Part shown: positions 1 through 5,885 of the stretch, piece after piece
Position numbering within the stretch: position 1 is the first letter of the stretch
Layout of the letters: each line of letters begins with the position of its first letter
Origin: an uncultured Saprospiraceae bacterium
Lineage (GTDB): Bacteria > Bacteroidota > Bacteroidia > Chitinophagales > Saprospiraceae
NCBI GenBank assembly: GCA_937942405.1
Contig: CALDEN010000139.1
Span: 1-5,885 of the forward strand
DNA: 5,885 nucleotides
Direction of reading: 5' to 3'
Made by a program: the position numbers and the translations under genes
The notes under the pieces: model-generated
What the model saw: the letters and a program-made list of their open reading frames with translations, nothing else
Told to the model about the DNA's origin: nothing
Databases searched by the model: none

Positions 1-939
1 TTCTTTTACTCCAGCTGCTAGAATTCTGACATTCTTAACTTTCTTTTTATTGAGCAAGAGCTTTATAATATTGAAGGGTAGGAGTCGTCCTTTTTTAAAG
101 TTCTTGGTAATCTGATTGATATCAGGCAGACTTATAGAAAAGCCTACGGGTTCATTGTCTTTTTCAGCGATATAGGCAAAGTCCGTATCGACTAACATCT
201 TAAGCCCTTCTGCGAGATGCTTAAACTCAGAGTCTGTAAATGGTACAAAACCCCAGTTGTTTTCCCATGCTGAGTTATATAATGACTTTATGCGGCCGAC
301 CTCATTGTTCCAGTCTTTGGTATTTATAGTTCTGATCTTAATCCCTTTATCAGCCAGTCGATCTTCTAACATGCCCATGAGGCGTATAAACTTCGGGGAG
401 GCAGTCTCAGTAGGAATGTAGTAGGCATACAGGTCCATCTCTTTGCGGAATCCATACTCTTCTATAAGCTGCTCATAATAGGGGGCATTGTAAGTCATCA
501 TAAGCATCGGAGACTTATCGTATCCGTCTATGAGCAGACCTGCCGTTTCGTTTGTACTAAAGTTTGTAGGGCCGATGACTTCGGTGTATCCTTTGGACTG
601 CAGATATGCACTGGCTTTATCCAGTAATGCGGTACTTACTTCTGACGAATCGATGCAATCAAAGAATCCAAAAAAGCCCACATTAGAGCCATGGTACTCA
701 TTATATCTAGGATTACTGACAGCGGATATACGACCGACTATTTTATCATCGGCATACGCCAAAAAATTCTTTACCTCTCCGTACTCATAAAATGGGTATT
801 TCTTAGTATCGAACATTTCTTTCTGAGAAAGATATAGTTCAGGTACATACTTGTCATCATGAGCATAGAGTTCATGATTGAAATCTATAAATCGTTTTAT
901 GTCTTTTTTAGAGCTTATTTCTCTGATAGAGACACTCAT
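1..939 (-). CDS. GNAT-fold N-acyltransferase, YghO/bacterial ceramide synthase-like (3' end outside window)
   Basis: The first 313 codons are visible and the C-terminus lies beyond the left edge. Likely role: N-acylation of a long-chain base to form (dihydro)ceramide, in the cytoplasm or at the inner membrane face. Seen in the sequence: an acetyltransferase-like strand with a KIVGRISAV segment near residues 66-74, a conserved core GPTNFSTNETAGLLIDGYD at 123-141, then MMTYNAPYYEQLIEEYGF at 147-164, and a second GNAT-like strand around 254-270 (FAYIAEKDNEPVGFSIS). The GP-FS-N-GLL-G / M-YN-PYY pattern is what I recall for the YghO/BcerS-like family, which contains the Caulobacter ceramide synthase. 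The ATG overlaps the stop of the upstream serine palmitoyltransferase as ATGA, so translation is probably coupled, which supports a role in sphingolipid synthesis. The family call is fairly sure. Ceramide synthase activity is inferred from family and context; another N-acyl transfer remains possible. Confidence 0.75.
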   Translation of the reverse strand, partial: MSVSIREISSKKDIKRFIDFNHELYAHDDKYVPELYLSQKEMFDTKKYPFYEYGEVKNFLAYADDKIVGRISAVSNPRYNEYHGSNVGFFGFFDCIDSSEVSTALLDKASAYLQSKGYTEVIGPTNFSTNETAGLLIDGYDKSPMLMMTYNAPYYEQLIEEYGFRKEMDLYAYYIPTETASPKFIRLMGMLEDRLADKGIKIRTINTKDWNNEVGRIKSLYNSAWENNWGFVPFTDSEFKHLAEGLKMLVDTDFAYIAEKDNEPVGFSISLPDINQITKNFKKGRLLPFNIIKLLLNKKKVKNVRILAAGVKE

Positions 940-2141
940 GCATATTCATTTATGATATCGAATATCTCCAGTTTACGGGCAATCTTGGCGATCTTCTCTA
1001 CGGATTCCTCGATCTGAGCAAACGTATGCGTAGACATCAACGAATATCTTATAAGCGATGATGAACTCGGGACTGCAGGTGATACTACAGGATTTACAAA
1101 TATGCCCTCCTCTAAGAGTTCCTTAGTCAGTTGGAAGGTTTTATAATCATCTCTAACATATATCGGAATGATCGGAGTCTCTGTATGTCCAGTATCGAAT
1201 CCTGCTTCCTTTAAAAGTTTCAAGGCATGATGGGTGTTATCCCATAGTTTCTGAATTCGTTCTGGTTCAGACTGTATTAAGTCTAAGGCTGCAATTACAG
1301 CTGCAGCATTTCCTGGTGCGATACTCGCACTGAAGATCAGAGATCTTGCATTGTGTTTTAGGAAATTGATCGTATCGTTATCAGCAGCTATAAAACCTCC
1401 TATAGAAGCAAGCGACTTACTGAATGTACCCATGATAAGGTCTACATCATCAGTGAGGCCAAAATGAGAAGCGGTTCCTCTTCCGAGCTCTCCGACTACT
1501 CCTAAGCCATGTGCATCATCGATCATGATGTTTGCATCATATTTTTTGGAAAGTGCCACTATTTCTGGAAGCTTAGCGATGTCTCCCTCCATTGAGAACA
1601 CACCATCTACCGCGATCAATTTTATCTTGTCAGGCTCACATTTAGAAAGCACCTTTTCGAGAGATGCCATATCGTTATGCTTGTATTTAAGCACTTTGGC
1701 GAAAGCCAAACGAGCACCATCTATGATACACGCATGGTCTAGCTCATCTATGATTATATAATCGTGTCTACCTGGTATAGAACTGATAACACCTAGATTT
1801 ACTTGAAAACCCGTACTGAATACCAAGGCTCCTTCTTTACCTACATATTTAGCCAGTTTATCTTCCAGCTCGATATGTAAGTCCAGTGTTCCGTTTAAAA
1901 AACGAGAACCTGCACAACCAGATCCGTACTTATTTATTGCGGCTATAGATGCCTCTTTAAGTTTAGGATGATTAGTAAGGCCTAGATAACTATTGGATCC
2001 AAACATAAGGACATCCTTACCATTTATTTTAACCACCGTGTCTTGTTCTGATTCGATGGTTCGGAAGTATGGATAGAAGCCCATTTCCATAACCTTTTGA
2101 GGTATGTCATAAGCTTTCATCTTTTTATTCAGTAGCGACAT
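936..2141 (-). CDS. spt: Serine palmitoyltransferase (alpha-oxoamine synthase, PLP-dependent)
   Basis: This enzyme condenses L-serine with palmitoyl-CoA (or a similar acyl-CoA) to 3-ketosphinganine, the first committed step of sphingolipid synthesis. The 401-residue length is normal for the soluble bacterial homodimeric form, and no membrane segment is seen. The PLP lysine is K242 in GTFSKSLASIGGF. H136 (in DELDHACIIDG) should stack on the PLP ring; D208 and H211 lie in the IDDAHGLGV motif. The spacing of H136, D208, H211 and K242 matches the H159, D231, H234 and K265 of the Sphingomonas paucimobilis enzyme. Segments such as LMFGSNSYLGLT, GCAGSRFLNGTLD and NPVVSPAVP match, from memory, the Sphingobacterium enzyme much better than BioF or Kbl, which usually have a different lysine loop. 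The ATG lies 13 nt after the preceding stop, and the TGA overlaps the next ATG by 4 nt. Very secure call. Confidence 0.95.
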   Translation of the reverse strand: MSLLNKKMKAYDIPQKVMEMGFYPYFRTIESEQDTVVKINGKDVLMFGSNSYLGLTNHPKLKEASIAAINKYGSGCAGSRFLNGTLDLHIELEDKLAKYVGKEGALVFSTGFQVNLGVISSIPGRHDYIIIDELDHACIIDGARLAFAKVLKYKHNDMASLEKVLSKCEPDKIKLIAVDGVFSMEGDIAKLPEIVALSKKYDANIMIDDAHGLGVVGELGRGTASHFGLTDDVDLIMGTFSKSLASIGGFIAADNDTINFLKHNARSLIFSASIAPGNAAAVIAALDLIQSEPERIQKLWDNTHHALKLLKEAGFDTGHTETPIIPIYVRDDYKTFQLTKELLEEGIFVNPVVSPAVPSSSSLIRYSLMSTHTFAQIEESVEKIAKIARKLEIFDIINEYA

Positions 2142-2154
2142 AAAATGTACATTT

Positions 2155-3078
2155 TTATCTTAAATACGAGGCTAGGTGATCGAGGATCGCTGTAAATCTA
2201 GACTTGTAGATAATTTTTTCACAAATAGCAATAGCAAAGATAGCACAAAATATTCCCAACAAAACATCTATAAAGTAATGTTGCATGCTGTAAACAGCAC
2301 CATACCATGTACCGATCATATACACGAATGAAATAATGGAAAGTTTCGTGTAATTATATTTTTTCATGTAATACAACGTAATTACAGGATAAGCACTATG
2401 TAATGAAGGAATAGCTCCAAAAATATTTCCGTTCTTCCCATAAATCCCTTCAAAAATGGGAAGACCTATCAGCTCGTCAAATCGTGTAAGGAATGATGCA
2501 CTTCCAGGAGCATCTTGTATAAACTCAAAACCATACTCATATACATACCACGGAGGTGCTGCAGGAAAGCCATAATATCCGATAAGCCCGATCATGTTAC
2601 AGAATAAAAAACAAAACGAGTAATACATTAGGTGTTTTGGTTGAGAGCCGGATAAGTAGATACCGATCGCAATAGGAAATGGCATCCACATCAGGTAAAA
2701 AATACCAGAGAAGAAATCACTGATGGTATTTAAATGCTGAGCGAAATATTCATTAGGGGTAACCACAGTGCCATTAAGGCTTACGCCAAAGAGTGCTTTC
2801 TCAGCTTCATATAGATCTTGTATATGGACAGTCGCAAAAGAATATCCCGGCAATGCCCCGAGCGAATCATAAATAACCGCCCATGCTAAAAACATAAATA
2901 TTCCACAAACGATTTTATGCGTACGCTCTGTTAAGAAAAACAGTGCAGTAAGACCGATCATGATGGCTATATGATCTGACCGTAAACCAACTAGGATAGT
3001 CAGCCATAGTAAGTAGCAAATGATAAATACAGCAAATACTGTTACTCTATTTTTTGAAAATCTTCTTTGTGAAAACAA
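2155..3078 (-). CDS. PAP2-fold membrane transferase, Aur1/inositol-phosphorylceramide synthase-like
   Basis: This is a 307-residue polytopic membrane protein with about six hydrophobic segments (roughly 12-31, 36-50, 56-70, 122-142, 152-170 and 247-290). Known of the family: Aur1-type enzymes transfer phosphoinositol from phosphatidylinositol to ceramide, releasing diacylglycerol. Seen: the Aur1-like FPAAPPWY motif at 171-178, the PAP2 motif GAIPSLHSAYP at 221-231 with H227, and the second catalytic motif QHYFIDVLLG at 266-275 with H267 and D271. The EAEKALFG segment at 91-98 also fits the IPC synthase side of the superfamily. Position between a PIP synthase-like gene and serine palmitoyltransferase supports transfer to ceramide, although a lipid phosphatase function cannot be excluded. 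The start is TTG at 3078: a stop codon (TAG) lies six codons upstream with no ATG or GTG between, and the first in-frame ATG (residue 40) would remove the first membrane helix. Confidence 0.82.
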   Translation of the reverse strand: MFSQRRFSKNRVTVFAVFIICYLLWLTILVGLRSDHIAIMIGLTALFFLTERTHKIVCGIFMFLAWAVIYDSLGALPGYSFATVHIQDLYEAEKALFGVSLNGTVVTPNEYFAQHLNTISDFFSGIFYLMWMPFPIAIGIYLSGSQPKHLMYYSFCFLFCNMIGLIGYYGFPAAPPWYVYEYGFEFIQDAPGSASFLTRFDELIGLPIFEGIYGKNGNIFGAIPSLHSAYPVITLYYMKKYNYTKLSIISFVYMIGTWYGAVYSMQHYFIDVLLGIFCAIFAIAICEKIIYKSRFTAILDHLASYLR

Positions 3079-3133
3079 GGAGTTGGTTTTGGCCTATGAA
3101 GTAAAATTAGAAAAGCAATTTAGAAGTGGCTAT

Positions 3134-3658
3134 TTAGAGCCTGATTTTTTGCAGTATTGAGCGATTATTATCGACAGTCGTTCCGTAGAGTTCGATGAAC
3201 TTCACATCCGGGAATAGTCCAAATTCCTCTGCATGCACATAGATGTTAGAAAGACGGATGTATTCTCCATCTCTTCTATAGAAAACAGCAAAGTCGTTTT
3301 CATGCTTACTCAAGTAGAAAGTAATGGCGTCATATGAGACAAAATGAAATTGGAAGCTGTGGTGATTTATTTTTTTAAAATTGCAACCATAGGCCAGTTT
3401 ACTTTGCATTACGGTTAATGCTTTGGTCTCACCTTCATCATCATAACGTATCCATTGTATAGCGATCGGTTCATTTTCATTGATCGTGCCATCTAAATTT
3501 AGATTTACATTGTAGATGACCGTATTTAGATTATGATTACGTTGAATGTAAAAAAGTAAATCTCTGGTTTTTTCAGGTGCAGGATAGTGAGATGGTAAAC
3601 CACTTACAGTCGCAAATTTTCTTTTGTTTCTATTGAGGTGTGGTTTTTTAAAAAACAT
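3134..3658 (-). CDS. DUF4833-like protein of unknown function
   Basis: The function is not known. I choose the ATG at 3658 (174 residues), one base after the upstream gene's TAA; a start ten codons earlier (3688) is open but would overlap that gene by 29 nt. The protein has a basic N-terminus (MFFKKPHLNRNKRK), no clear signal peptide and no membrane helix. From about residue 34 it resembles DUF4833 as I remember it: LLFYIQRNHNLNTVIYNVNL (34-53), a DGTINENEPIAIQWIRYD stretch (56-73), and KLAYGC (87-92), followed by alternating hydrophobic residues that suggest a beta-rich fold. From memory, a DUF4833 gene also sits in the Bacteroides thetaiotaomicron inositol-lipid locus beside a PIP synthase, so a role in inositol-lipid metabolism or transport is likely by association. 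No catalytic motif is recognised, and it ends 55 nt before the next start. Confidence 0.75.
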   Translation of the reverse strand: MFFKKPHLNRNKRKFATVSGLPSHYPAPEKTRDLLFYIQRNHNLNTVIYNVNLNLDGTINENEPIAIQWIRYDDEGETKALTVMQSKLAYGCNFKKINHHSFQFHFVSYDAITFYLSKHENDFAVFYRRDGEYIRLSNIYVHAEEFGLFPDVKFIELYGTTVDNNRSILQKIRL

Positions 3659-3659
3659 A

Positions 3660-4358
3660 TTACATCTTAGCAAGTTCACGTTTTGCAAAAAGCAATCTTC
3701 TGACCGCCGTCACATTGGCTGATAAAGCCAATAAAAAGATCGGAAATGTAAAGACAGAAATGGTCTCATAAAGTGGGAATGGTAACCAATCGACATTAAC
3801 TTTTATGTCTCCATAGTAATGGAAAATGACCCCACAGACTATTGCAGATATACTCACGAGTAAGATTCTCTCAGGTCGCTGCATAATACCCACAGAGCAG
3901 TTTACCCCTAATGCCTCGGCTCGAGCTCGTGTGTAACTGACCATGATCGATCCGATCATGGCTATAAATGCCGCCATGGAACTTAAAAAATAATCGTGAC
4001 TGATCAGATAATAACAGATACCTAGGAACATAATAAGCTCACTATATCTATCGAGTACAGAGTCATACAAGGCACCATATGAGCTAGACATGTTACCCTC
4101 TCGAGCGAGTCGACCATCTACCATATCCATAAGACCGGCTAAAAGTATTGTGAAGCCGGCATAACCGATGTAACGGAAATCTCCTCGTTGGGCTTTTTCA
4201 GCACCATAGATCAGTATCCCTGTAGCGACCATATTTATAATCAGCCCTAAAAAGGTGATCATATTAGGTGTGATGCCTAGTTTTAGCATCAATCTGATCA
4301 TCGGATTGATAATAACGTAAACAAGTTGTTGTGCTTTATCCTTTAAGCTATGTGCCAC
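3660..4358 (-). CDS. CDP-alcohol phosphatidyltransferase, phosphatidylinositol-phosphate synthase type
   Basis: This integral membrane enzyme of 232 residues transfers a phosphatidyl group from CDP-diacylglycerol to an alcohol, probably inositol phosphate. The full family signature D(x)2DG(x)2AR(x)8G(x)3D(x)3D is present, with D78, D81, G82, A85, R86, G95, D99 and D103; the four aspartates bind the catalytic metal ions. The segment SYTRARAEALG (141-151) followed by GIMQRPERILLV (157-168) closely resembles the basic inositol-phosphate pocket of actinobacterial PIP synthases and is not typical of PgsA or PssA. About six hydrophobic helices are visible. The start is GTG at 4358, since an in-frame TAA lies three codons upstream and no ATG intervenes. 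It is the first gene of the leftward operon, and its stop lies 1 nt from the next start. The exact alcohol substrate is inferred. Confidence 0.85.
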   Translation of the reverse strand: MAHSLKDKAQQLVYVIINPMIRLMLKLGITPNMITFLGLIINMVATGILIYGAEKAQRGDFRYIGYAGFTILLAGLMDMVDGRLAREGNMSSSYGALYDSVLDRYSELIMFLGICYYLISHDYFLSSMAAFIAMIGSIMVSYTRARAEALGVNCSVGIMQRPERILLVSISAIVCGVIFHYYGDIKVNVDWLPFPLYETISVFTFPIFLLALSANVTAVRRLLFAKRELAKM

Positions 4359-4384
4359 TTTGTTGGTTTAATAAAAAGTATCTC

Positions 4385-4392
4385 CAAATATG
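4385..4392 (-). promoter_or_regulatory. Possible -7 element of the leftward lipid operon
   Basis: On the minus strand this reads CATATTTG, a 7 of 8 match to the Bacteroidota -7 consensus TAnnTTTG, 26 nt before the GTG at 4358. A second 7 of 8 match, TACTTTTT, lies at 4373-4380. Neither has a clear TTG-type -33 element at the usual distance, so the choice between them is open. The operon must nevertheless start in this 77-bp divergent gap or read through from outside. Confidence 0.3.
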
Positions 4393-4419
4393 AGACTATT
4401 TAAAGGATATAAGAAATTT

Positions 4420-4427
4420 TAATTTTG
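4420..4427 (+). promoter_or_regulatory. Possible -7 element upstream of mqnA
   Basis: TAATTTTG is a perfect match to TAnnTTTG. Transcription from it would begin only a few bases before the ATG at 4436, giving an almost leaderless mRNA, and the element overlaps the alternative GTG start at 4427. No good -33 box is seen at 17-19 nt upstream, so this may be a chance match in AT-rich DNA. Confidence 0.3.
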
Positions 4428-4435
4428 TGAGTTCA

Positions 4436-5176
4436 ATGGAGAAAAAGAAAAAAATCGTCTTAGTAGACTATTTTAATACCGAGCCTTTTTTGGCAGGATT
4501 GAGAACTGTAGTCGATAAGTATGAAATAATAGGCAAAATACCTGCTGAATGCACTTCTTATTTTAATGCCAAAAAAGCAGATATCGGATTAGTCCCGGTG
4601 GCTAGTTTTTTTGAAATGGAAGCGGCTCATATGATTACTGATTATGGGATCGGCTGTGATGGGACCGTCAGAACGGTAGTATTGTTTTCTAATACTCCCA
4701 AAACAGAAATACGCAAAATTTATTTAGATGATCATTCTAGAACTTCGGTACAGCTCTGTAGAATTGTAGCAAAACGTTTTTGGGACATCGATGTAGAGTA
4801 TGTGAGAACAGATGTATCTCAAATTAGTTTGGGGAAGAATGAAGCCGTCCTCATGATTGGCGATAAGGTCTTCGACCACGAAGGATGCTATGCGTATACC
4901 TATGATTTAGGGGAAGAGTGGAAAGAAGAGACAGGATTGCCGTTTGTATTTGCGGTATGGGTAAGCCATAAAAAAGTTTCTCAACTAGAGGAGCAAGGGC
5001 TAAATGCTGTTTTTGATAAAGGCCTACAACAGATTCCAAATCTCGTCCAAGATTTAAAAAAGCAAAAGGACATGGATCTACAGAGTTATTTTGAGAAAAA
5101 TATTGTTTATAGAATTGGAGATGAAGGTAGAAAGGCGATTGCTTTATTTAAGTCATTACTAATTTCTAGTAATTAG
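4436..5176 (+). CDS. mqnA: Chorismate dehydratase MqnA (futalosine menaquinone pathway)
   Basis: MqnA dehydrates chorismate to 3-enolpyruvoyl-benzoate, the entry step of the futalosine route to menaquinone, in the cytoplasm. The protein has 246 residues from ATG 4436, within the usual 240-280 range. Family signatures in order are VDYFNTEPF (10-18, equivalent to the S/NYLNT motif), ADIGLVPVASFFE (48-60), GIGCDGTVRTVVLFSN (71-86), IYLDDHSRTSVQL (95-107), IGDKVF (141-146) and DLGEEWKEETGLPFVFAVW (157-175). The periplasmic-binding-protein-like fold without a signal peptide fits MqnA rather than a transporter component; MqnD lacks the GCDG and SRTS arrangement. GTG at 4427 is an alternative in-frame start adding three residues; ATG is preferred because the GTG lies inside a -7-like motif. 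It is divergent from the lipid operon and 49 nt before the next gene. The organism therefore probably makes menaquinone via futalosine; other mqn genes are not in the window. Confidence 0.92.
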   Translation: MEKKKKIVLVDYFNTEPFLAGLRTVVDKYEIIGKIPAECTSYFNAKKADIGLVPVASFFEMEAAHMITDYGIGCDGTVRTVVLFSNTPKTEIRKIYLDDHSRTSVQLCRIVAKRFWDIDVEYVRTDVSQISLGKNEAVLMIGDKVFDHEGCYAYTYDLGEEWKEETGLPFVFAVWVSHKKVSQLEEQGLNAVFDKGLQQIPNLVQDLKKQKDMDLQSYFEKNIVYRIGDEGRKAIALFKSLLISSN

Positions 5177-5184
5177 CCTTAATT

Positions 5185-5192
5185 TAGATTTG
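5185..5192 (+). promoter_or_regulatory. Possible -7 element upstream of the FabH-like gene
   Basis: TAGATTTG matches TAnnTTTG perfectly and lies 33 nt before the ATG at 5226, a sensible leader length. No TTG is present 17-19 nt upstream, so the promoter call is weak. It would allow the FabH-like gene to be expressed independently of mqnA. Confidence 0.35.
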
Positions 5193-5225
5193 GAAAATTA
5201 TTAATTAGGAAAAATTTTTTCTGAA

Positions 5226-5885
5226 ATGAAAAAAACTAAAATAGCTGGGATCGGTCATTACGTACCATCTAATGTGTACACAAACGATGATCTAACACAG
5301 TATATGGATACCTCTGATGGATGGATCCAAGAAAGAACTGGGATAAAAGAGAGAAGGTATGCGACCAAGCATAAAGAGACTACAACAACCATGGCAGCAG
5401 AAGCGGCCAAAATTGCAATAGAAAGAGCGGGGATAGATAAGGAAGACATTGATTTCATCATATTTGCCACTTTGAGTCCAGATTATTACTTTCCAGGATG
5501 TGGCGTTTTATTGCAGCGAGAACTGGGTATTACCAATACAGAAATAGGAGCTCTCGATATACGTAATCAGTGCTCGGGATTTGTATATGGAATTTCTATT
5601 GCCGATCAGTTTATAAAAACGGGAATGTATAAAAACATTCTACTTGTAGGAGCAGAGATGCATTCTATGGGATTGGATTTCAGGACTGAGGGTAGAGGAG
5701 TAACTGTGCTCTTCGGAGATGGAGCAGGAGCTGTAATCTTACAGCCTACGGAAAAACAAAACCAAGGAATCTTATCCACTCATCTGCATTCTGATGGGAC
5801 TAATGCAGAGCATCTAGCTCTCATAAATCCTGGATCTCATGGAGGACATCATTTAAAAGATATAGATTTTGGCTATCCAGATAAC
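5226..5885 (+). CDS. 3-oxoacyl-ACP synthase III, FabH-like (3' end outside window)
   Basis: The first 220 codons of a ketoacyl synthase III of usual length about 310-350. KAS III enzymes condense an acyl-CoA starter with malonyl-ACP to begin fatty acid synthesis; paralogues prime branched, aryl or other special acyl chains. Seen: an N-terminal KIAGIGHYVPSNVYTNDDL stretch (5-23), DGWIQERTGIKERR (31-44), the catalytic cysteine C116 in DIRNQCSGFVYG, and the glycine-rich FGDGAGAV (163-170). The catalytic His and Asn expected further on are beyond the right edge. The TLSPDYYFPGCGVLLQ segment (82-97) replaces the TTTPD..FPS pattern of housekeeping FabH, so a paralogue with its own starter preference is possible. 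ATG 5226 is the natural start because the conserved KAS III N-terminus begins directly after it. It follows mqnA on the same strand with a 49-nt gap. The symbol is left empty because Bacteroidota often carry several FabH copies. Confidence 0.9.
   Translation, partial: MKKTKIAGIGHYVPSNVYTNDDLTQYMDTSDGWIQERTGIKERRYATKHKETTTTMAAEAAKIAIERAGIDKEDIDFIIFATLSPDYYFPGCGVLLQRELGITNTEIGALDIRNQCSGFVYGISIADQFIKTGMYKNILLVGAEMHSMGLDFRTEGRGVTVLFGDGAGAVILQPTEKQNQGILSTHLHSDGTNAEHLALINPGSHGGHHLKDIDFGYPDN

What the first reader, a model, noticed from the sequence alone, without database searches (positions are those of the whole stretch)
1..4358. Apparent single operon for phosphoinositol (dihydro)ceramide, joining backbone and headgroup genes
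Seen: five same-strand genes with gaps of 1, 55, 13 and -4 nt, carrying PIPS-type, DUF4833-like, Aur1-type PAP2, serine palmitoyltransferase and YghO/BcerS-type signatures. Known, from memory: in Bacteroides thetaiotaomicron the spt gene and the inositol-lipid cluster (BT_1522-BT_1526) are at separate loci. Inference: this organism encodes a near-complete inositol sphingolipid pathway in one transcription unit, so backbone and headgroup supply are co-regulated. The linkage is also good evidence that the Aur1-like acceptor is ceramide.
Basis: partly seen in the sequence, partly recalled or inferred. Interest (0 to 1): 0.75.

Follow-up and report, generated by a model that had tools for sequence, protein, structure and literature searches.

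The report
Fused inositol-sphingolipid gene cluster
Five tightly packed bacterial genes, the last cut by the end of the contig, match the first half of a ten-gene cluster in related bacteria that is predicted to make a phosphoinositol ceramide from start to finish, whereas the well-studied gut Bacteroides keep the two halves of this pathway apart.

Summary
In detail: five minus-strand genes (gaps 1, 55, 13, -4 nt) encode a PIP-synthase-like enzyme, DUF4833, an Aur1-like PAP2 enzyme, serine palmitoyltransferase (SPT) and a YghO-type N-acyltransferase (CerS). The window is a whole contig of a 65%-complete bin and ends inside the fifth gene. Same-genus G001 and same-family G005 carry the continuation: CerR-like reductase, MIPS, PgpA, GtrA and a lipid kinase. 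The linkage recurs: in a 248-genome family sample, 30 of 45 genomes with both Aur1 and SPT have them adjacent; 51 of 80 named Aur1 loci (Pedobacter, Mucilaginibacter, Pontibacter and others) carry SPT. Split arrangements exist too: one Bacteroidales clade, and 14 of the 45. The halves also come apart: G002 (same genus) and G206 lack PIPS, Aur1, MIPS and PgpA at the locus but keep SPT, CerS, CerR and DUF4833; eight genomes have PIPS-Aur1-MIPS modules without an SPT match, which weakens 'linkage shows that the acceptor is ceramide'. Co-transcription and the lipid itself are untested, and Aur1 and PIPS score below curated cut-offs. My ten literature searches found no paper describing this fused cluster. 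A new variant of a known pathway.

The parts
3660..4358 (-). CDP-alcohol phosphotransferase of PIP-synthase (BT_1523) type; predicted to make phosphatidylinositol phosphate from CDP-diacylglycerol and inositol phosphate
   Evidence: Pfam CDP-OH_P_transf 60.1 bits; NF052561 PIPSynBT1523 334.9 bits, cut-off 350; structure 6h53 (CDP-diacylglycerol-inositol phosphotransferase) E 2e-18, with the DxxDGxxAR...GxxxDxxxD motif
3134..3658 (-). DUF4833 protein, function unknown; in this family it accompanies the backbone genes
   Evidence: PF16117 121.1 bits; kept in G002, G206 and G224 without Aur1 or MIPS in the genome; AlphaFold model mean pLDDT 87, no clear PDB match
2155..3078 (-). Aur1/BT_1522-like PAP2 enzyme; predicted to move phosphoinositol from phosphatidylinositol to (dihydro)ceramide
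   Evidence: AUR1 structures 9vj3 E 1.1e-20 and 9ivc E 1.9e-20, no other PDB sequence match up to E 10; NF052609 298.5 bits, below cut-off 480; H227, H267 and D271 invariant in 22 sequences
936..2141 (-). Serine palmitoyltransferase, first step of the sphingoid backbone
   Evidence: NF047600 694.9 bits over cut-off 640; SPT structures 8guh and 3a2b 535 bits, against 270 bits for cysteate-C-fatty acyltransferase 28eh
1..939 (-). YghO-type GNAT N-acyltransferase, predicted ceramide synthase (CerS); its C-terminal end is missing at the contig end (313 residues, against 376 in G001)
   Evidence: 35% identity to E. coli YghO over 313 aa; G001 orthologue 67% identical, itself 35% to YghO over 378 aligned positions; 4-nt overlap with SPT
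4359..4426 (-). 68-nt gap to the divergent MqnA-like gene; would hold the cluster's promoter (inferred)
   Evidence: Divergent gene starts at 4427; promoter-like matches not above shuffles

Best explanation
The window carries five closely spaced genes, the fifth cut by the contig end, that match the first half of a ten-gene backbone-plus-headgroup cluster in relatives, which is predicted to be one transcription unit and likely makes phosphoinositol (dihydro)ceramide. Proposed working: SPT would join serine and an acyl-CoA; the YghO-type CerS would N-acylate the product; an epimerase-family CerR (seen in relatives, beyond this contig) would reduce it to dihydroceramide. In parallel MIPS (in relatives) would make inositol phosphate, PIPS would attach it to CDP-diacylglycerol, the PgpA-type phosphatase (in relatives) would remove the extra phosphate, and the Aur1-like enzyme would transfer phosphoinositol to dihydroceramide, releasing diacylglycerol. 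The lipid kinase at the end of the relatives' clusters might return that diacylglycerol to phosphatidate. Shown here: gene families, order, spacing, conservation, and joint presence and absence. Inferred: every reaction, co-transcription, and that the rest of the cluster exists in this organism. DUF4833's role is unknown.
For: Families and motifs. Ten-gene cluster in the same order with the same divergent MqnA-like neighbour in G001 and G005 and in Saprospiraceae bin L063. In 13 family clusters the 115 gaps have median 5 nt and 104 are at most 65 nt. Aur1 and SPT adjacent in 30 of 45 family genomes with both; MIPS linked to both in 18. Of 80 named Aur1 loci 51 hold SPT on the same strand and 33 hold SPT, CerS, CerR, MIPS, PgpA and PIPS. 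G002 and G206 lack PIPS, Aur1, MIPS and PgpA together, from separate places in the cluster, while SPT-CerS-CerR stay. In B. theta deletion of BT_1522, BT_1523 or BT_1526 removes or nearly removes inositol phosphoceramide and BT_1525 is the PIP phosphatase.
Against: Aur1 and PIPS score below the curated cut-offs, as do six of seven Aur1 proteins scanned elsewhere. MIPS not found in this bin. In 14 of 45 genomes Aur1 and SPT are on different contigs; G060 has them deep inside two contigs. Twelve Aur1 genomes lack an SPT call and eight of them have PIPS-Aur1-MIPS modules. G087 has the cluster without Aur1. Spacing is loose in some: 8 of 115 gaps exceed 100 nt, up to 513 nt, and L118 has an opposite-strand ORF inside. 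No promoter or terminator signal clearly above chance.
Confidence: 0.82

Rival explanations
1. The two halves are neighbours without a joint product: the Aur1-like enzyme transfers phosphoinositol to another acceptor, and SPT feeds a differently decorated ceramide.
For: Of 12 family genomes with Aur1 but no SPT call, eight carry contiguous PIPS-Aur1-MIPS modules, six of these eight in bins of 92-100% completeness; SPT-bearing G002 and G206 do without Aur1.
Against: Aur1-SPT adjacency in 30 of 45 genomes with both; the only PDB sequence relatives are inositol phosphorylceramide synthases; BT_1522 is genetically the main IPC synthase of B. theta.
Confidence: 0.12
2. The gene order is chance neighbourhood or an artefact of one contig.
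For: One short contig of a 416-contig bin; same-genus G002 and G003 (73% complete) have no Aur1 match.
Against: Same order in other genomes of the family, and the same genes together in cultured isolates of other groups such as Pedobacter and Pontibacter.
Confidence: 0.02
3. The headgroup is not inositol phosphate: the CDP-alcohol enzyme attaches another alcohol phosphate and the lipid is another phospho-ceramide.
For: PIPS score 334.9 is below the PIPSynBT1523 cut-off 350; no MIPS found in this bin.
Against: 51 of 57 Aur1 genomes of the family sample have MIPS; MIPS lies in the cluster of G001, G005 and L063; nearest structures are CDP-diacylglycerol-inositol enzymes.
Confidence: 0.06

Closest known systems
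Bacteroides thetaiotaomicron inositol lipid cluster BT_1522-BT_1526 (PMC9246714, PMC8791184; outline and passages seen)
   Same: Aur1-like, PIPS, GtrA, PgpA-type phosphatase and MIPS families, in the window or in its relatives' clusters
   Different: B. theta has SPT as BT_0870, elsewhere, and no DUF4833 among BT_1522-1526; here SPT and the YghO-type acyltransferase follow Aur1 directly, with CerR and a lipid kinase in the relatives' clusters
Caulobacter crescentus ceramide genes spt, cerS, cerR (PMC11324152, PMC11087976; passages seen)
   Same: SPT, an N-acyltransferase and a reductase; PMC11334938 (passage) says these three are often clustered in genomes
   Different: Proteobacterial SPT uses a special acyl carrier protein; other headgroups (recalled). 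The same passage of PMC11334938 says the three genes are not close together in sphingolipid-producing Bacteroidota; here they are
Inositol phosphorylceramide synthase AUR1 (PDB 9vj3, 9ivc)
   Same: Sequence similarity E about 1e-20, with PSLHS and HYF-D motifs aligned
   Different: Alignment covers residues 47-278 of 307; the bacterial enzyme would use dihydroceramide
E. coli YghO
   Same: 35% identity over nearly the full length
   Different: Annotated as a putative transcriptional regulator in K-12; E. coli makes no sphingolipid of its own (passage: lack of native de novo synthesis)

Membership tests
Serine palmitoyltransferase (NF047600, Bacteroidota type) | Score over curated cut-off 640 | tested here: met
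   694.9 bits
Serine palmitoyltransferase (NF047600, Bacteroidota type) | Condenses serine with acyl-CoA | not testable with these tools
   Needs an enzyme assay; closest structures are serine palmitoyltransferases
Phosphoinositol dihydroceramide synthase (NF052609) | Score over curated cut-off 480 | tested here: not met
   298.5 bits, its only NCBIfam match at E 0.001; six of seven other Aur1 proteins also below (267-343), Bacteroides cutis 561. Hence called Aur1-like, not filed as a member
Phosphoinositol dihydroceramide synthase (NF052609) | PAP2-type H-H-D residues | tested here: met
   H227, H267, D271 invariant in 22 sequences; that these are catalytic is recalled
PIP synthase, BT_1523 type (NF052561) | Score over curated cut-off 350 | tested here: not met
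   334.9 bits
PIP synthase, BT_1523 type (NF052561) | DxxDGxxAR...GxxxDxxxD motif | tested here: met
   Read in the translation of 4358-3660 and the alignment; motif as printed in PMC9246714
Bacterial ceramide synthase (CerS, YghO-type GNAT) | Homology to YghO over most of the length | tested here: met
35% over 313 aa, 35% over 378 positions for G001.
Bacterial ceramide synthase (CerS, YghO-type GNAT) | N-acylation of a sphingoid base | not testable with these tools
   Needs an assay
B. theta-type inositol phosphoceramide pathway | MIPS, PIPS, PIP phosphatase and Aur1 all encoded | tested here: inconclusive
   PIPS and Aur1 in the window; MIPS not found in the 65%-complete bin; PgpA not searched there; all four in G001 and, by my profiles, in G005 and L063
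Operon | Single transcript over the five genes | not testable with these tools
   Spacing only; scans not clearly above chance
DUF4833 (PF16117) | Score over gathering cut-off 23.1 | tested here: met
   121.1 bits

The most novel reading that the evidence does not exclude
Probability: 0.13. Interest if true: 0.75.

Novelty: new variant of a known kind. Interest (0 to 1): 0.5.

Why it matters
Work on bacterial inositol sphingolipids centres on gut Bacteroides, where SPT and the inositol genes are apart, and a 2024 paper repeats that SPT, CerS and CerR are not close together in sphingolipid-producing Bacteroidota. Here, and in loci of Pedobacter, Mucilaginibacter, Pontibacter and others, backbone and headgroup genes form one compact cluster, so candidate genes for the whole route can be read off one locus, some of it in cultured strains, and moved as one piece. 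The natural absences (G002, G206) and the stand-alone modules give ready comparisons for which genes belong to which half, and they point to two unassigned families, DUF4833 and DUF5686.

Tried and rejected

Rows dropped and limits of the counts. Of 82 SPT places I left out 16 (447-502 bits; probably other alpha-oxoamine synthases; one, G195, is a fragment) and kept 66. G053 is counted as adjacent on a 74-residue Aur1 match. In the named loci SPT needed 53% identity to the window's SPT. L090's Aur1 was not found by my ORF script and is missing from the tree. Searches were compared by eye. One search counted gaps in eight clusters that I had picked (70 gaps, median 4); redid it for all 13 family clusters held and is the one used. 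ORFs in scripts are mechanical longest ORFs, so gaps are approximate. In G002 and G206 PIPS and PgpA were looked for at the locus only; Aur1 and MIPS genome-wide.

Literature: ten searches showed no paper describing a fused SPT-inositol cluster; DUF4833 is in 0 papers of the library. The library lacks most subscription papers, among them the one cited as ref. 38.
Full report
What is there. The window is one complete contig (C139) of a genome bin of 2.0 Mb in 416 contigs, 64.8% complete. Five minus-strand genes run from 4358 down to base 1 with gaps of 1, 55, 13 and -4 nt. They encode a CDP-alcohol phosphotransferase of PIP-synthase type, a DUF4833 protein, an Aur1-like PAP2 enzyme, serine palmitoyltransferase (SPT) and a GNAT protein 35% identical to E. 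coli YghO. The SPT call is over its curated cut-off; PIPS and Aur1 match the expected NCBIfam models best but stay below their cut-offs. The fifth gene is cut by the contig end. On the other strand an MqnA-like gene and a FabH gene lead away from the cluster.

The rest of the cluster. In G001 (same genus, 98% complete) and G005 (same family, 100% complete) the same five genes, with the same divergent MqnA-like neighbour, continue into an NAD-dependent epimerase-family gene (CerR-like), MIPS, PgpA, GtrA and a YegS/DAGK-type lipid kinase, all on one strand (Pfam and NCBIfam run on the G001 proteins). The named bin 'Saprospiraceae bacterium MAG-55' (L063) has the identical order. In the 13 clusters of this family that I held, 115 gaps have median 5 nt; 104 are at most 65 nt and 8 exceed 100 nt. 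MIPS was not found in the window's own bin, and the CerR query found only a 25%-identical protein, as would be expected if the missing piece lies past the contig end.

How common the linkage is. Family sample, 248 genomes: Aur1 in 57, SPT (555 bits or more) in 66, both in 45. Aur1 lies directly upstream of SPT on the same strand in 30 of 45, on the same contig in another order in 1, and on different contigs in 14; MIPS is linked to both in 18. Phylum sample, 395 genomes: 12 have Aur1 and an SPT over cut-off, and in 8 of these, the window included, the two lie within about 10 kb; in 4 they do not (compared by eye). Named loci: 51 of 80 carry SPT on Aur1's strand, 47 carry SPT, CerS and CerR, and 33 carry SPT, CerS, CerR, MIPS, PgpA and PIPS. 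Among those with SPT are Pedobacter, Mucilaginibacter, Pontibacter, Rufibacter, Niastella, Chryseobacterium and Cyclobacteriaceae loci. Of the 29 without SPT, 14 have short flanks and 15 long ones; 13 of those 15 fall in one Aur1 clade of Bacteroides, Parabacteroides, Dysgonomonas and related bins (support 100, quick tree). Counts in related genomes are not independent.

Two modules. Gene order differs between lineages. Saprospiraceae type: [PIPS-DUF4833-Aur1]-[SPT-CerS-CerR-MIPS-PgpA-GtrA]. Pedobacter and kin: the same two blocks in reverse order, with DUF5686 and often a fatty-acid hydroxylase added. Several Bacteroidales-labelled bins: PIPS-MIPS-PgpA-GtrA-DUF5686-SPT-CerS-CerR-DUF4833-Aur1. 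Two natural absences separate the functions. G002 (same genus, 98% complete) keeps DUF4833-SPT-CerS-CerR at the same spot, with MqnA and FabH beside it, but lacks PIPS, Aur1, MIPS, PgpA, GtrA and the kinase there. G206 (99% complete) keeps DUF4833, SPT, CerS, CerR, GtrA and a kinase but lacks PIPS, Aur1, MIPS and PgpA. Those four correspond to the PIP synthase, IPC synthase, MIPS and PIP phosphatase defined genetically in B. theta; GtrA (BT_1524) was without lipid phenotype in one study and lowered IPC in the other. Conversely eight genomes without an SPT match at E 1e-120 have PIPS-Aur1-MIPS modules (L129-L135, L138); of the other four Aur1 genomes without SPT, G067 and G222 have a lone Aur1-like gene (L136, L137), G255's Aur1 lies at a contig end, and G195 has only an SPT fragment. 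In G060 the modules sit in two long contigs (L140, L141). G087 has the cluster without Aur1 and DUF4833.

Mechanism. SPT, CerS and CerR would give dihydroceramide; MIPS, PIPS and PgpA would give phosphatidylinositol; Aur1 would join them. The steps are described for other species in the papers seen and are inferred here. The order CerS then CerR follows a proposal for Caulobacter. The roles of the kinase and of DUF4833 are open; in Porphyromonas a dihydrosphingosine kinase is known, so the cluster kinase could act on the sphingoid base, on ceramide or on diacylglycerol.

DUF4833. Within the family sample 40 of 44 DUF4833 genomes have SPT; in 27 of the 40 it lies within 6 kb on the same strand; 7 of the 40 lack Aur1, and in three of these 7 (G002, G206, G224) it is beside SPT. 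Outside the family the tie to SPT fails. The part before the domain is hydrophobic and signal-like in 27 of 32 loci; the five without are L009, L011, L014, L022 and L063, all of the window's family or named Saprospiraceae (L009 read by eye, because the script cut at a wrong motif). In one search, 14 of 15 loci of the window's family lack it (L105 has it) and all ten from other families have it; the window's own N-terminus also lacks it. So the protein seems to have lost its export signal in this family. The model is a confident beta-rich fold without a clear PDB match.

Papers. PMC9246714: outline and passages. PMC8791184, PMC11324152, PMC11334938, PMC11087976, PMC9386255, PMC9278070, PMC12724326, PMC9045371, PMC10865984, PMC10191378: passages only. 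PMC11334938 states, citing another paper that I did not see, that SPT, CerS and CerR are not close together in sphingolipid-producing Bacteroidota; 47 of the 80 Aur1 loci here carry all three on one strand within the stretch.

Noticed in passing
window 3134-3658; L009, L011, L014, L022, L063, L104-L117, L141 against L023-L100 and L120-L128: DUF4833 has a signal-like hydrophobic N-terminus outside the window's family (27 loci, ten sequences) but not in 14 of 15 loci of the family (L105 is the exception): its location seems to have changed.
   Followed up: partly
L044:5355-7958, L023:3173-5728, L060:5404-7965, L033:5463-8003, L105:4868-7474: An ~850-aa DUF5686 protein with a CarboxypepD_reg-like domain sits in these clusters; my profile finds one on the Aur1 strand in 48 of 80 named loci, 39 of them with SPT.
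   Followed up: partly
L044:9298-9918, L033:9310-9954, L060:9335-9970: A fatty acid hydroxylase (PF04116) lies just before Aur1 in Pedobacter-type clusters; 30 of 80 named loci by my profile, 29 with SPT. It could hydroxylate the ceramide.
   Followed up: partly
L129-L135, L138: PIPS-Aur1-MIPS modules in genomes with no SPT match at E 1e-120: the acceptor of Aur1 there is unknown.
   Followed up: partly
L139 (G019), L134 (G213): A second, weaker Aur1-like PAP2 gene precedes DUF5686-PIPS-Aur1-MIPS.
   Followed up: no
window 2155-3078 against L009, L011: Aur1 diverges faster than its neighbours: to G005, SPT 81%, PIPS 66%, Aur1 42% identical; window and G001 Aur1 form a long separate branch.
   Followed up: no
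L045: A contig labelled Desulfobacterales carries MIPS, PIPS and Aur1 and groups with Rufibacter/Pontibacter Aur1: transfer or misbinning.
   Followed up: no
L120, L121: DUF4833 beside GtrA, a CDP-alcohol phosphotransferase, a PhyH dioxygenase and an SDR (Pfam on L120 only): possibly a different lipid cluster.
   Followed up: partly
genomes of other classes: 281 of 299 phylum-sample genomes with an SPT-model match stay below its cut-off; those visible in the capped list score 482-526 bits. Possibly another alpha-oxoamine synthase.
   Followed up: no
window 4427-5885: Divergent MqnA-like (menaquinone) gene and FabH; both also flank the cluster in G001 and the reduced cluster in G002.
   Followed up: yes
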